DNA of 42,932 bases from NCBI GenBank assembly GCA_011390205.1, contig JAABSX010000034.1, positions 1 to 42,932 of the forward strand, read 5' to 3'. This stretch comes from Microscillaceae bacterium. GTDB taxonomy: Bacteria > Bacteroidota > Bacteroidia > Cytophagales > Microscillaceae. The notes beneath the pieces are model-generated. The model searched no databases. It was not told the DNA's origin and worked only from the letters and a program-made list of their open reading frames with translations. How positions within the stretch are numbered: position 1 is the stretch's first letter; each line of letters starts with the position of its first letter. The position numbers were made by a program, and so were the translations under genes. This document shows positions 1 through 42,932 of the stretch, in pieces.

Positions 1-2017
1 TGGTGAGCGTAATAATCATCGGCTCGGTGCTGGCATCTTCAAAGACACGCAGCTCGAAGAAATCCGTAATCTGCAAGATGTCAAAGGCTTTGAGGTATTG
101 GCGGAGGGCAGTGCCGTATTTGGTTTTGAGCCATTTGTTGGGCGTGATAAAGCCGAGGTAGCCTTTGGGCTTAAGGAGCTGGGCAGCTCGGGCATAGAAA
201 TAGACATACAAATCAGCCGTGCCACTATAGACCTGCGGAAAATGCTTTTGGAGGGCTTGCTTTTGTTCGTTGCTGAGGAGTTCTTGCCTTACATAAGGCG
301 GATTGCCGATGATGACATCAAAATCTTGGGCGGGGGCTTTGTCTAGCAAGGTATTGACCTGAAAGATATTTTGGGAGAGGTCGGCAAGGCTCACAAATTT
401 ATTGGCAGTGAGCAGCCACAGTGCCAATTTACTAATCTCTACACTCTGCATATTGATATCAAAGCCAAAGAGATTATTTTGAACAATGTTTTTTTTGATT
501 TCCCATTCTTGTTGGTTGTCTTCTATGCTTTCTTTGGCATCGGCGAAGATGCCCTGCTTGCTTTGAATTTTGCTGCTAGGCTGTTTGATTTTGTGGATTT
601 CGTCTGTCAGGATTTTCCATTCATCATACAAAAAATTAAAAACCTGGGTCAGAAAAGCCCCCGAGCCACAGGCAGGGTCTAGGATTCGGATTTGTGCCAA
701 AAAGGAGCGATATTCTTCCCAGAAGTGTATATTTTCTTCTTTGTGCTTCTGGAGCAAGGCTTTTTTTTGAGCCATCAGATAAGTGCCGAGTGTATGCAAG
801 ATGATGTACTGCGTGATGTAATCAGGCGTATAAAAGATGCCGTCTTGCTTGCGTTGATTGGGTTTGGGCGAGTTTTGGGTGGTTTTTTGGGCCAATCTTT
901 CTAAATCGGAGAGCGATTGCTCAAAGATATGCCCTAGCAAGTTTACGTTGAGTTCACTCTGAAAGTCATATTTTAGCACAAAATCAATCAAGGGCATAAG
1001 CTGATAATCTTGCACCTGAAGCTGTGTGTCTAGCAAGTCATCTTTTTTGAAAAGTCCTCCGTTAAAATGAGGTATTTTGGGCAAAAACCCTTGATTAAAA
1101 GAATGAAAGGCTTTTTTGAGTTCTATCCAAAAAATATCTTTTTGCAGATAATGCTCCGACAATGCCGCCAGACCTTTTTTGATATTGCCCAAGATATTAA
1201 TCATCGGCAGGGTATCTCTCACAAAACAGATAAAAATAATGCGGTCTATCAGCTTCTGGGTAAGCGATAAAATGACCGAAGGGGAGAGGGCAGGGTTTTC
1301 TTTGCAGAGATTTTGAAACAAAATAGCCCGAATCTCTTCGTATTGAAAATAAAATTCATTGGAAACTTTTTCTTCAAAAATTCTTCTTTCTGTTAGTAGC
1401 TGGTCTATGCGGCTTTGTGTGTGGTTTTCTTTTAAGAAAAGGCGGTCTTTTTTGAGCAAAAATAAAAATTTGGCAAGTACTGGCTCATTGAGCAAAGCCA
1501 TGACTTCAAATTTTTCGTATCGGTTGCTGTCGCTGGCGTGGTAAAGCCTTATTTCCAAAAAATTAGAGACAATCACCCATCTGCACGTTCCGCCCATTTT
1601 GGGTACATAGCCAAAGGCTTGCTCTACGGGAGAGCCTTTTTTTTCTCTGAGTTGTGGCTTGTCTAAGTTGATATTTGCCCCTTTGAGCTCGATGACTGCC
1701 CTGACCGTTTTTTCTCCATTCGTACCAAAATAGCCCAAGCTGGCATCGGGTCTGGTGGCATCTTGGAGTGTTTTGGGTTTAATTTCTATTTGCCACAGGG
1801 CTTCATTTTGATATTCGTAGCCTAGCACCTCCCCGAATATTTGGTGGATGAAGCTCATATCTAGCTGTGTCTCAGAGAGTTGGAATATTTTACCACTCTC
1901 GATGTACTTTTGCCATTGGCGGAGGGCTTGTTTTTTTTGCTCTAGCTGTGGGGTATTGCCCAAGACAGTGCTTAACTCATGGGCAGGAAAATCTTTGAGA
2001 GCAAATATATTTTTCAT
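1..2017 (-). CDS. Type IIG (Eco57I-like) restriction-modification enzyme, C-terminus cut off by window edge
   Basis: One polypeptide that should both methylate adenine and cut DNA. I translated 672 uninterrupted codons from the ATG at 2015-2017 to the window edge. An N-terminal PD-(D/E)xK nuclease core is visible (P90-D91, then E110-L-K112 in VIELKGA). A helical linker and the GIFYTPDYI element (about 393-401) follow, then an N6-adenine methylase with motif I DPACGSGAFL (447-456) and catalytic motif IV NPPYV (572-576). The target-recognition part would lie beyond base 1, so the recognition site cannot be judged. No Shine-Dalgarno is seen. An ISP-type or other Eco57I-family relative is also possible, but the nuclease plus methylase on one chain argues for type IIG. 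It stands alone on its strand, 150 bases from repeat copy 1. Confidence 0.88.
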   Translation of the reverse strand, partial: MKNIFALKDFPAHELSTVLGNTPQLEQKKQALRQWQKYIESGKIFQLSETQLDMSFIHQIFGEVLGYEYQNEALWQIEIKPKTLQDATRPDASLGYFGTNGEKTVRAVIELKGANINLDKPQLREKKGSPVEQAFGYVPKMGGTCRWVIVSNFLEIRLYHASDSNRYEKFEVMALLNEPVLAKFLFLLKKDRLFLKENHTQSRIDQLLTERRIFEEKVSNEFYFQYEEIRAILFQNLCKENPALSPSVILSLTQKLIDRIIFICFVRDTLPMINILGNIKKGLAALSEHYLQKDIFWIELKKAFHSFNQGFLPKIPHFNGGLFKKDDLLDTQLQVQDYQLMPLIDFVLKYDFQSELNVNLLGHIFEQSLSDLERLAQKTTQNSPKPNQRKQDGIFYTPDYITQYIILHTLGTYLMAQKKALLQKHKEENIHFWEEYRSFLAQIRILDPACGSGAFLTQVFNFLYDEWKILTDEIHKIKQPSSKIQSKQGIFADAKESIEDNQQEWEIKKNIVQNNLFGFDINMQSVEISKLALWLLTANKFVSLADLSQNIFQVNTLLDKAPAQDFDVIIGNPPYVRQELLSNEQKQALQKHFPQVYSGTADLYVYFYARAAQLLKPKGYLGFITPNKWLKTKYGTALRQYLKAFDILQITDFFELRVFEDASTEPMIITLT

Positions 2018-2166
2018 CAAGCGGTTAATTTTTTGAATAATGCCAATTACAAATGTAGATTTTTTTGCTCAATCTTCAAAAAACTTTTAATCCTTTTATT
2101 GAAGACTTGTTGTGAGTAAATTGAGAATGAGTGAATTGTAAGTATCTGAGTATATTTAGTTTACAT

Positions 2167-2414
2167 CCCACTTTCCGCACCCTCTTTTTATGAATGAATG
2201 ATTTACAAGTAAAACGATATAAGATTTCACACCTACGGTATTTCTGTTTCTTGACATGACATTTTCTACAAAGATTTCAGTCTTAACGGACTTAAAAAAG
2301 CCGCAGGCTTTTCATCTTTGTAGCCTAAGAGAGCAAAAAATATGTCCACCACTTTTAGGTGTGGTATCTTTGACCTAAATCAAGGAATAGTTAAGAAAGG
2401 GTGCGGAAGGAGGG
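2167..2414. repeat. MITE-like structured repeat, copy 1
   Basis: A 248 bp non-coding element related along its length to 42385-42627. The ends are imperfect inverted repeats sharing TTCCGCACCCT (2173-2183 with 2398-2408). The identical six bases TTACAT lie just outside each end (2161-2166 and 2415-2420), as a target-site duplication would. Inside are a small hairpin around CCTACGG (2229-2241), a 10 bp inverted repeat CTACAAAGAT/ATCTTTGTAG (2266-2275 with 2314-2323) enclosing two mini-hairpins, and a third hairpin near 2346-2364. There is no ORF. With the inverted repeat at 2440-2483 it accounts for the 516-base gap between the flanking genes. Confidence 0.82.
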
Positions 2415-2439
2415 TTACATGATTCTGGAGCAAAATTTA

Positions 2440-2483
2440 GCCATTCGATTGCCACTAGATGAATCTGGTGGCAATCGAATGGC
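2440..2483 (-). terminator. 16 bp perfect inverted repeat, probable terminator of the Smr gene
   Basis: GCCATTCGATTGCCAC (2440-2455) pairs perfectly with 2468-2483 across a 12-base loop that can itself pair further. It lies 50 bases past the stop of the minus-strand Smr gene, and on that strand the stem is followed by TAAATTTTGC. The T stretch is weak, so a role linked to the adjacent repeat element is an alternative. Confidence 0.6.
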
Positions 2484-42272: not shown

Positions 42273-42384
42273 TGGTGATTGCAAATTAAAGAATCTTATA
42301 AGGGTATAATTTCAGTATGATGTAAATAAAACAGCTTTTTCAAGGATTTTAAGCCTATTTAATCTTTGAAAATATACCTAAAAT

Positions 42385-42627
42385 CCACTTTCCGCACCCT
42401 CTTTTTGGGAATGAAAGATTTGCCTCATGAAGCTGGCATATTTCACGCCTACGGCGTTGCTCGTTTTTAGCTTGGCATTTTCTACAAAGATGACAAGCCT
42501 ACGGCTTTTTTAAGTCCCTTAGGACTTAAATCTTTGTAGCAAAAGAGGTTCAAAGCGTAACCAACACCTCTGGGTGTGGCATCTTTGGCCTAAATCAGAG
42601 AACAGTTGAGAAAGTGTGCGGAAAGTG
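42385..42627. repeat. MITE-like structured repeat, copy 2 (core inverted relative to copy 1)
   Basis: Perfect 12 bp terminal inverted repeats CACTTTCCGCAC (42386-42397 with 42616-42627). Hairpins: ACGCC-TAC-GGCGT (42445-42457), the CTACAAAGAT/ATCTTTGTAG pair (42482-42491 with 42530-42539) with two mini-hairpins inside, and ACACC/GGTGT (42564-42577). The outer parts align with copy 1 in the same orientation at roughly 70% by eye; the 38-base inside of the central arm matches copy 1 only after reverse complementing. No target duplication is convincing. With ~110 plain AT-rich bases before it, it fills the 362-base gap after the TetR gene. Confidence 0.85.
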
Positions 42628-42634
42628 AGCTAAC

Positions 42635-42932
42635 CTACTCAATCCCCACCCCATCAATCACCCTCATAATCCTATCAGTCTCAGTCAGGGCTATGATAAT
42701 TTTTTGGTAGTGTAAGATGTCCTCAAACTCCAATACTCTGCCTTTGCGGTCTTTGAGCCACTTTTGGGCAGGCTGATAACCACCAATGTAGAACTCCCAA
42801 GCAACCGCAGGCACTCCCTCAAAGTATTGTGTATCATTGATATAAACTCTGTTACCTTCGTATTTGGGTTTATCTACTTCATTGTTGCCATTGATGGGGT
42901 ATTGGGTGAGGTACTGCTCTACCACGGGGCTT
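42635..42932 (-). CDS. C-terminal end of a type IIG/ISP-like restriction-modification protein (partial)
   Basis: About 99 codons, open at the right edge; the GTG at 42925 is internal and not the true start. Residues GGYQPAQKWLKDRKGR, EFEDILHYQKIIIALTETDRIM and a final short acidic end match the C-terminal region found in ISP-type and Eco57I-like restriction-modification enzymes and related helicase-methylases. That domain helps recognise or contact target DNA. It ends with TAG only 7 bases from repeat copy 2. It may be a paralogue of the left-edge enzyme, which would have such an end outside this window; not provable here. Confidence 0.7.
   Translation of the reverse strand, partial: SPVVEQYLTQYPINGNNEVDKPKYEGNRVYINDTQYFEGVPAVAWEFYIGGYQPAQKWLKDRKGRVLEFEDILHYQKIIIALTETDRIMRVIDGVGIE

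What the first reader, a model, noticed from the sequence alone, without database searches (positions are those of the whole stretch)
2266..2323. Core of a repeat element inverted between its two copies
Both copies contain a 58-base arm bounded by CTACAAAGAT/ATCTTTGTAG (copy 1 2266-2323, copy 2 42482-42539). The 38 bases inside agree at 33 of 38 positions only when one copy is reverse complemented, but at about 17 of 38 in direct register, while all surrounding sequence aligns in direct orientation. The same holds for the mini-hairpin loops. So the segment has flipped in one lineage, using the 10 bp inverted repeats or cruciform processing. A miniature invertible element inside a MITE-like repeat is unusual and could be a switch or a mark of hairpin-transposition.
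Basis: seen in the sequence. Interest (0 to 1): 0.8.

Follow-up and report, generated by a model that had tools for sequence, protein, structure and literature searches.

The report
One-time flip inside a mobile repeat
A short, foldable piece in the middle of a small bacterial mobile repeat really is turned round in one copy relative to the other, but most of the other copies that could be judged keep one orientation, so it looks like an old copying accident rather than a working genetic switch.

Summary
The 38 bases inside the CTACAAAGAT/ATCTTTGTAG arms agree at 33 of 38 positions only when one copy is reverse complemented (17 of 38 direct; best of 20,000 shuffles 21), while both flanks align directly. 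The host is a ~248-bp MITE with ends CCCACTTTCCGCACCC, 6-bp target duplications in 5 of 7 full copies and no ORF of 60 aa or more. I examined 20 copies in the genome. Of 14 whose outer and core orientation could both be scored, 12 carry the 2266-2323 orientation and 2 (window 42384 and contig C30) the other. Decayed copies combine outer arms like those of the flipped pair with the common core orientation, so the flip is probably derived in that pair; one change suffices on an unrooted tree (the pair's own clade is unsupported). The core folds into two hairpins on a 10-bp stem. Best explanation: an ancestral spacer inversion between the 10-bp arms, probably by polymerase template switching, then spread by transposition. 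An active switch is not supported. The core belongs to a Bacteroidota-wide four-hairpin repeat. A second genome hints, weakly, that flips recur.

The parts
2167..2414 (+). Full MITE copy, common core orientation (called B)
   Evidence: 97-98% identical to four other copies; target duplication TTACAT on both sides
2161..2166 (.). target-site duplication, left (TTACAT)
2415..2420 (.). target-site duplication, right (TTACAT)
2167..2182 (+). terminal inverted repeat, left (CCCACTTTCCGCACCC)
2399..2414 (-). terminal inverted repeat, right (CCCTCCTTCCGCACCC read on the - strand)
2229..2242 (.). left outer hairpin (approximate limits)
   Evidence: read; homologous part aligned
2266..2323 (+). 58-base core: 10-bp arms around two hairpins; three-way fold
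   Evidence: -12.6 kcal/mol as DNA, z -5.7
2347..2366 (.). right outer hairpin (approximate limits)
   Evidence: read; also found as a terminator-like stem on the - strand
42384..42629 (+). Full MITE copy with the flipped core (called A)
   Evidence: 87% to the contig C30 copy, 72-73% to the B copies
42444..42458 (.). left outer hairpin
42482..42539 (-). 58-base core, inverted relative to 2266-2323
   Evidence: fold -15.3 kcal/mol, z -7.8
42564..42577 (.). right outer hairpin
   Evidence: read; aligned

Best explanation
A non-autonomous mobile element (MITE) of about 248 bp carries a four-hairpin palindromic insert. Its 58-base core is two hairpins on a 10-bp perfect inverted-repeat stem. In one ancestral copy the polymerase switched templates between the two 10-bp arms, which the core's own hairpins can bring together, and copied the spacer from the opposite strand, so the spacer was inverted while everything outside stayed in place. 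That copy then gave rise to two present copies (window 42384 and contig C30:48446). Shown: the inversion, its position between the arms, and its rarity among scorable copies. Well supported: which state is derived. Inferred: template switching as the mechanism, and a single event rather than two. In several comparisons the core is conserved beyond the arms in either orientation, which suggests that its foldable structure, not its direction, is what matters.
For: Inversion exact, with collinear flanks. The breakpoints lie within the 10-bp arms, because the bases next to CTAC and GTAG keep the direct orientation. Of 20 copies 14 scorable: 12 common, 2 flipped. With the two flipped cores turned back, the 20 copies align as one family. 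All 13 decayed copies match the flipped pair's outer arms at more diagnostic sites than those of the B copies (e.g. C69 18 against 2, C70 19 against 3; smallest margin C30b 9 against 8), yet the 7 of them that are scorable have the common core orientation. One change on the tree; three outer columns carry a base shared by the two flipped copies and by at most one other. Core fold z -5.7 to -7.8. Core against outer divergence between flipped and B copies: 1 of 58 against 37 of 190 and 2 of 58 against 52 of 189, p 0.0003 and 2e-5. Precedent: spacer inversion by template switching, seen only at arms longer than 9 bp (PMC8604942, passages).
Against: The precedent's inverted spacers were 2-5 bp, here 38. 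The tree is unrooted and the clade of the two flipped copies is unsupported (58/4.8), so two independent flips are possible. The core is not more conserved in every comparison: C69, C33 and C102 show no significant difference, and between c2167 and C124 the trend is the other way (3 of 58 against 3 of 191, p 0.14). Six of 20 copies could not be scored firmly, and unfiltered scores label four of those as flipped. In G022 the commoner arrangement resembles the flipped state here, which would fit repeated flipping.
Confidence: 0.7

Rival explanations
1. The core is an actively invertible switch, flipped by a site-specific recombinase at the 10-bp arms.
For: Both orientations exist in one genome; the arms are perfect inverted repeats.
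Against: 12 of 14 scorable copies share one orientation, including five 97-98% identical copies and seven older decayed ones. Each orientation among full copies goes with its own lineage of outer arms. No sigma-70 promoter-like site at the first copy (the second copy was not scanned, Bacteroidota promoters are not covered). Recombinases were not searched for.
Confidence: 0.04
2. The core of the flipped copies was replaced by another copy's core in inverse direction (ectopic gene conversion, or a nested palindromic unit inserted the other way round), rather than inverted in place.
For: The C30 core is 57 of 58 identical to a B-type core while the outer arms are 81%. The core-plus-hairpin unit occurs with other outer ends in other genomes.
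Against: Decayed copies in the common orientation (C59, C22b, C50) also have better-conserved cores than arms, so conversion is not needed. By eye no target duplication surrounds the core.
Confidence: 0.17
3. Flips recur: the inverted-repeat core turns round now and then in this repeat family, as in plastid small inversions, and the two flipped copies may be two events.
For: The clade of the two copies is unsupported. In G022, of 33 cores listed, 9 have outer hairpins of opposite type on the two sides: 7 have the arrangement that is rare here and 2 the other; with one-ended copies 17 against 6.
Against: Ten of the 33 G022 cores gave no polarity, and polarity rests on one base per outer hairpin; p 0.18 and 0.035. 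In the Prolixibacteraceae-type repeat 14 of 14 readable copies from 8 assemblies keep one orientation.
Confidence: 0.2
4. The flip is a mark of hairpin or cruciform processing during transposition of the element.
For: The whole element folds well (z -4.4 and -5.4).
Against: The element has terminal inverted repeats and 6-bp target duplications in 5 of 7 full copies, as for ordinary MITEs; 12 of 14 scorable copies show no flip.
Confidence: 0.05

Closest known systems
Inverted-repeat spacer inversion by DNA polymerase template switching (S. cerevisiae genes; PMC8604942, passages read)
   Same: Perfect inverted-repeat arms of about 10 bp; only the spacer is inverted; flanks collinear.
   Different: Inverted spacers there were 2-5 bp in yeast coding genes; here 38 bp, itself two hairpins, in a bacterial mobile element that later multiplied.
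Small inversions in plastid hairpin loops (PMC6824564, passages read)
   Same: Loop of a stem-loop turned round between relatives; short stem (9 bp in the one table row I saw).
   Different: Plastid loops in that paper were 4-24 bp and change state several times; here one flip suffices in this genome.
Bacterial MITEs
   Same: Short, no ORF, terminal inverted repeats, 6-bp target duplications, several copies.
   Different: Carries a four-hairpin palindrome; no autonomous partner found.
REP/BIME palindromic repeats, GTAG and CGTC tagged (PMC3733652, passages read; CGTC repeats are reported there from Bacteroidetes among other phyla)
   Same: Paired hairpins in inverted orientation, extragenic; by my reading of ORFs, 4 of 7 full copies lie between converging frames.
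   Different: The conserved tag is CTACAAAGAT within a paired stem, not an unpaired GTAG or CGTC next to the hairpin; no such hairpin pair flanks the two Y1 transposase matches.

Membership tests
MITE | terminal inverted repeats | tested here: met
   CCCACTTTCCGCACCC ends
MITE | target-site duplication | tested here: met
   6 bp in 5 of 7 full copies (sequences also); absent in c42384 and C63
MITE | no coding capacity | tested here: met
   no ORF of 60 aa or more inside either window copy
MITE | autonomous partner with the same ends | tested here: inconclusive
   ends (up to 1 mismatch) in the own genome and 33 of 290 further genomes; 23 of the 33 have a single match and the reversed control pattern also matches in many, so most are likely chance; in 19 stretches of G005 and G006 ten pairs of ends enclose only 195-224 bp
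Template-switch spacer inversion | perfect inverted-repeat arms longer than 9 bp | tested here: met
   10 of 10 bases
Template-switch spacer inversion | only the spacer inverted, flanks collinear | tested here: met
Template-switch spacer inversion | event observed or dependent on replication | not testable with these tools
   needs an experiment
Invertible DNA switch (inverton) | both orientations at one locus in one population | not testable with these tools
   no reads available
Invertible DNA switch (inverton) | promoter or gene end inside the invertible part | tested here: inconclusive
   0 promoter-like sites in 2000-2600 by a sigma-70 scan, which does not cover Bacteroidota-type promoters; copy 2 not scanned
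Invertible DNA switch (inverton) | dedicated recombinase | not tested
   -
REP (GTAG type) | unpaired GTAG next to the hairpin | tested here: not met
   GTAG is paired within the 10-bp stem in the predicted fold
REP (GTAG type) | flanks a RAYT gene | tested here: not met
   two Y1_Tnp matches. Around one (L266) two one-mismatch arms lie 145 bases apart without the hairpin core, one of them in the stretch just before the gene; around the other none. This is one genome in 124 contigs

The most novel reading that the evidence does not exclude
The core is an orientation-neutral structural unit (two hairpins on a conserved CTACAAAGAT stem) of a Bacteroidota-wide repeat family. It is kept by selection or by repeated template switching and has been turned round more than once: this genome's common arrangement is the opposite of the commoner one in G022. 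It would then be a natural recorder of template-switch inversions in bacteria.
Probability: 0.2. Interest if true: 0.5.

Novelty: new member of a known kind. Interest (0 to 1): 0.3.

Why it matters
It separates a real but rare inversion from a supposed DNA switch. It offers a multi-copy setting in which spacer inversion at short inverted repeats can be placed on a tree. It also points to a widespread four-hairpin Bacteroidota repeat with a CTACAAAGAT core; my searches of the paper library for such repeats returned one paper, PMC3733652, and the passages of it that I read do not describe this one.

Tried and rejected
Hairpin swap without inversion: at most 22 of 38 over ten cut points. Chance: best of 20,000 letter shuffles 21 of 38. 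An autonomous transposon with the same ends: searched in the own genome (31 matches with up to 3 mismatches, 8 for the reversed control) and in 291 genomes of the order, own included, then read in 19 stretches of G005 and G006. Ten of the 19 show paired ends, 195-224 bp apart. I listed ORFs for 7 of the 19: two of these have paired ends, with the ORFs outside them, and in the other five only one end lies in the stretch; their proteins were not searched against families. Ownership by the genome's Y1 transposase: the L266 gene is flanked by other palindromes, by eye; L267 was only scanned for arms and ends. Rfam: 0 matches at gathering threshold in the window. Polarity in G022: a first regular-expression count held overlapping duplicates and was replaced. 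G065 and G129 copies gave no clear polarity. On alignment A1 (10 own and 23 G022 cores) I counted only the stem and the first hairpin, because the loop of the second differs by one base between genomes. Result: 4 pairs with changes on both sides against 0-2 in slid versions, and 14 cells against a shuffled mean of 6.3, but further pair types 9 against 9.3, and two stem pairs are unpaired in 15 and 12 of 33 rows. This is modest evidence, as the sequences are related.

Rows not used: of 63 matches I examined the 20 strongest distinct places; weaker ones such as C43, C58, C28 and C40 were not oriented. The margins used to of the 20 copies scorable (core score difference 20 or more, outer 15 or more) were set. 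Raw labels mark 6 of 20 as flipped: c42384, C30, and also C22a (tie), C91, C115 and C32. Junction reading favours the common orientation for C91 clearly (0 against 4 errors). For C115 it does so only if my by-eye outer orientation holds, and the outer score leans the other way (58 against 51). For C32 it does so barely (4 against 5), and C22a stays uninformative. C30b and C124b lean to the common orientation. In G022, 10 of 33 cores (6 without outer hairpins found, 4 with like or unclear types) were left out of the polarity count, and one listed core (L188) is doubtful. For the Prolixibacteraceae-type repeat the stems of both core hairpins were listed by script in 8 of the 14 copies and read by eye in 6 (L116, L124, L128, L133, L148, L163). 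The 14 come from only 8 assemblies, and ambiguous copies such as L159 and L164 and those with like outer hairpins on both sides were not counted.

Full report
Observation. The two cores, 2266-2323 and 42482-42539, are bounded by perfect CTACAAAGAT/ATCTTTGTAG arms. Their inner 38 bases agree at 33 of 38 positions when one is reverse complemented and at 17 of 38 in direct register. Swapping the hairpins without inversion reaches at most 22, and the best of 20,000 shuffles reaches 21. The outer arms align in direct orientation (score 172 direct against 58 reverse for the 42384 copy). The finding is confirmed.

The element. In the window's own genome (4.51 Mb, 124 contigs) the query finds 63 matches at E up to 10. 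Seven are full copies of about 248 bp with ends CCCACTTTCCGCACCC or close to it. Five of the seven have a 6-bp target duplication: c2167 TTACAT, C97 TTACAG, C124 TGAGCA, C30 TTCAAA, C31 TTTGAT. C63 and c42384 have none (also readable). No ORF of 60 aa or more lies inside either window copy. It is therefore a MITE by anatomy. Short A+T-rich elements with the same ends but another interior occur in this genome (C119:3896-4116, C117:3947-4165) and in two genomes of the same family, G005 and G006. No autonomous partner was found.

Core orientation across copies. Five full copies (c2167, C63, C97, C124, C31; the other four 97-98% identical to c2167) carry the core as at 2266-2323. Two (c42384 and C30:48446) carry it inverted. 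I scored 20 copies for outer and core orientation separately. With margins set afterwards, 14 are scorable: 12 common, 2 flipped. Of the other six, C91 reads as common at its one remaining junction, C30b and C124b lean to common, and C115, C32 and C22a are ambiguous or uninformative. Raw labels without margins would mark six of 20 as flipped, four of them with a tie, a small margin or almost no core left.

Which state is derived. When the two flipped cores are turned back, the 20 copies align as one family. All 13 decayed copies have outer arms closer to those of the flipped pair than to those of the B copies at 27 diagnostic columns (for instance C69 18 to 2, C70 19 to 3, C102 8 to 0; smallest margin C30b 9 to 8), yet the seven of them that are scorable have the common core orientation. 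So the pair seems to keep the older outer arms with a newly inverted core. On an unrooted tree of outer arms the trait needs one change, but the pair's own branch has support 58/4.8 only. Three columns carry a base shared by the pair and by at most one other copy. One event is the simplest reading; two are not excluded.

Why the core may be prone to this. As single-stranded DNA the 58 bases fold into two hairpins on the 10-bp stem in either orientation (-12.6 to -15.9 kcal/mol, z -5.7 to -7.8), which would bring the arms together. The breakpoints fall within the arms, because the bases just outside them keep direct orientation. Template switching between short inverted repeats is reported to invert spacers, only for arms longer than 9 bp, with spacers of 2-5 bp in yeast genes (PMC8604942, passages). 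Plastid hairpin loops of 4-24 bp invert repeatedly (PMC6824564, passages). Here the spacer is longer but folded. The mechanism is inferred, not shown.

Constraint on the core. Between flipped and B copies the core differs at 1 of 58 against 37 of 190 outer positions (C30, p 0.0003) and at 2 of 58 against 52 of 189 (c42384, p 2e-5). C59, C22b, C50 and C115 show the same trend. C69, C33 and C102 do not reach significance, and c2167 against C124 goes slightly the other way. A core kept in both directions suggests a structure whose direction does not matter.

The wider family. A scan of the named genome collection (84,980 species) for arms with 24-54 bases between them gave 59 stretches; records of the own genome may have been left out. 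Some are matches in unrelated bacteria or look like paired promoters. Many are Bacteroidota repeats with the same plan: outer hairpin, spacer, arm-hairpin-hairpin-arm, spacer, outer hairpin. In the Prolixibacteraceae type the core orientation is constant relative to the outer hairpins in 14 of 14 readable copies from 8 assemblies, 8 from stems listed by script and 6 by eye. In G022, same order, the two core halves are clearly homologous to those here. Polarity there rests on one base per outer hairpin. Of 33 cores, 9 have outer hairpins of opposite type on the two sides and 7 of these have the arrangement that is rare in this genome; with one-ended copies 17 of 23; ten cores gave no polarity (p 0.18 and 0.035). 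This is a hint of recurrent flipping, no more. Base pairs of the stem and first hairpin covary modestly across 33 cores of the two genomes, with one of the five measures not above its shuffles.

Is it a switch? There is no support. Among full copies the orientation goes with the element's lineage, no promoter-like site was found at the first copy (that scan does not cover Bacteroidota promoters), recombinases were not searched for, and no reads were available to test a population. Papers searched. None of the listings shows, by title or abstract start, an inverted core inside a bacterial MITE; the library holds only open-licence papers.

Noticed in passing
window 2-2020 (- strand) and 42635-42931 (- strand): Both window copies sit near restriction-modification genes: an Eco57I/MmeI-type methylase, cut by the contig end, starts at 2020, about 150 bases from copy 1, and a Type ISP C-terminal domain gene ends 6 bases beyond copy 2. 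A third place with a match to the ends, C31:70109 (2 mismatches), also adjoins a Type ISP gene.
   Followed up: partly
L064 (C119:3896-4116), L063 (C117:3947-4165): A second short A+T-rich MITE shares the terminal inverted repeats but not the interior; elements of 195-224 bp with such ends occur in G005 and G006.
   Followed up: partly
L041 and, in part, L047 (G011); L045 and, right end only, L043 (G014): CTACAAAGAT hairpin units lie inside other terminal inverted repeats in relatives (GAGCCTGTTCAAAA; TTGGTACTCTGACAATTTTAGT), as if the palindrome is cargo of different mobile elements.
   Followed up: no
window 2440-2483: A 21-bp inverted repeat, 95% complementary with 2 bases between the arms, just beside copy 1.
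   Followed up: no
L266:1426-1977 (C47): A 183-aa Y1 transposase gene with its own flanking palindromes (around AAGTCTGAGCGAAGCGGGGACTTG and its near complement) and a TATCTTTGTA stretch just upstream; in G022 the outward-reading arm of many copies has the same TATCTTTGTAG.
   Followed up: no
L139, L146, L151: In some Bacteroidales the arm pair without hairpins looks like two divergent promoters (TAnnTTTG, consensus recalled, not from a call) rather than a repeat.
   Followed up: no
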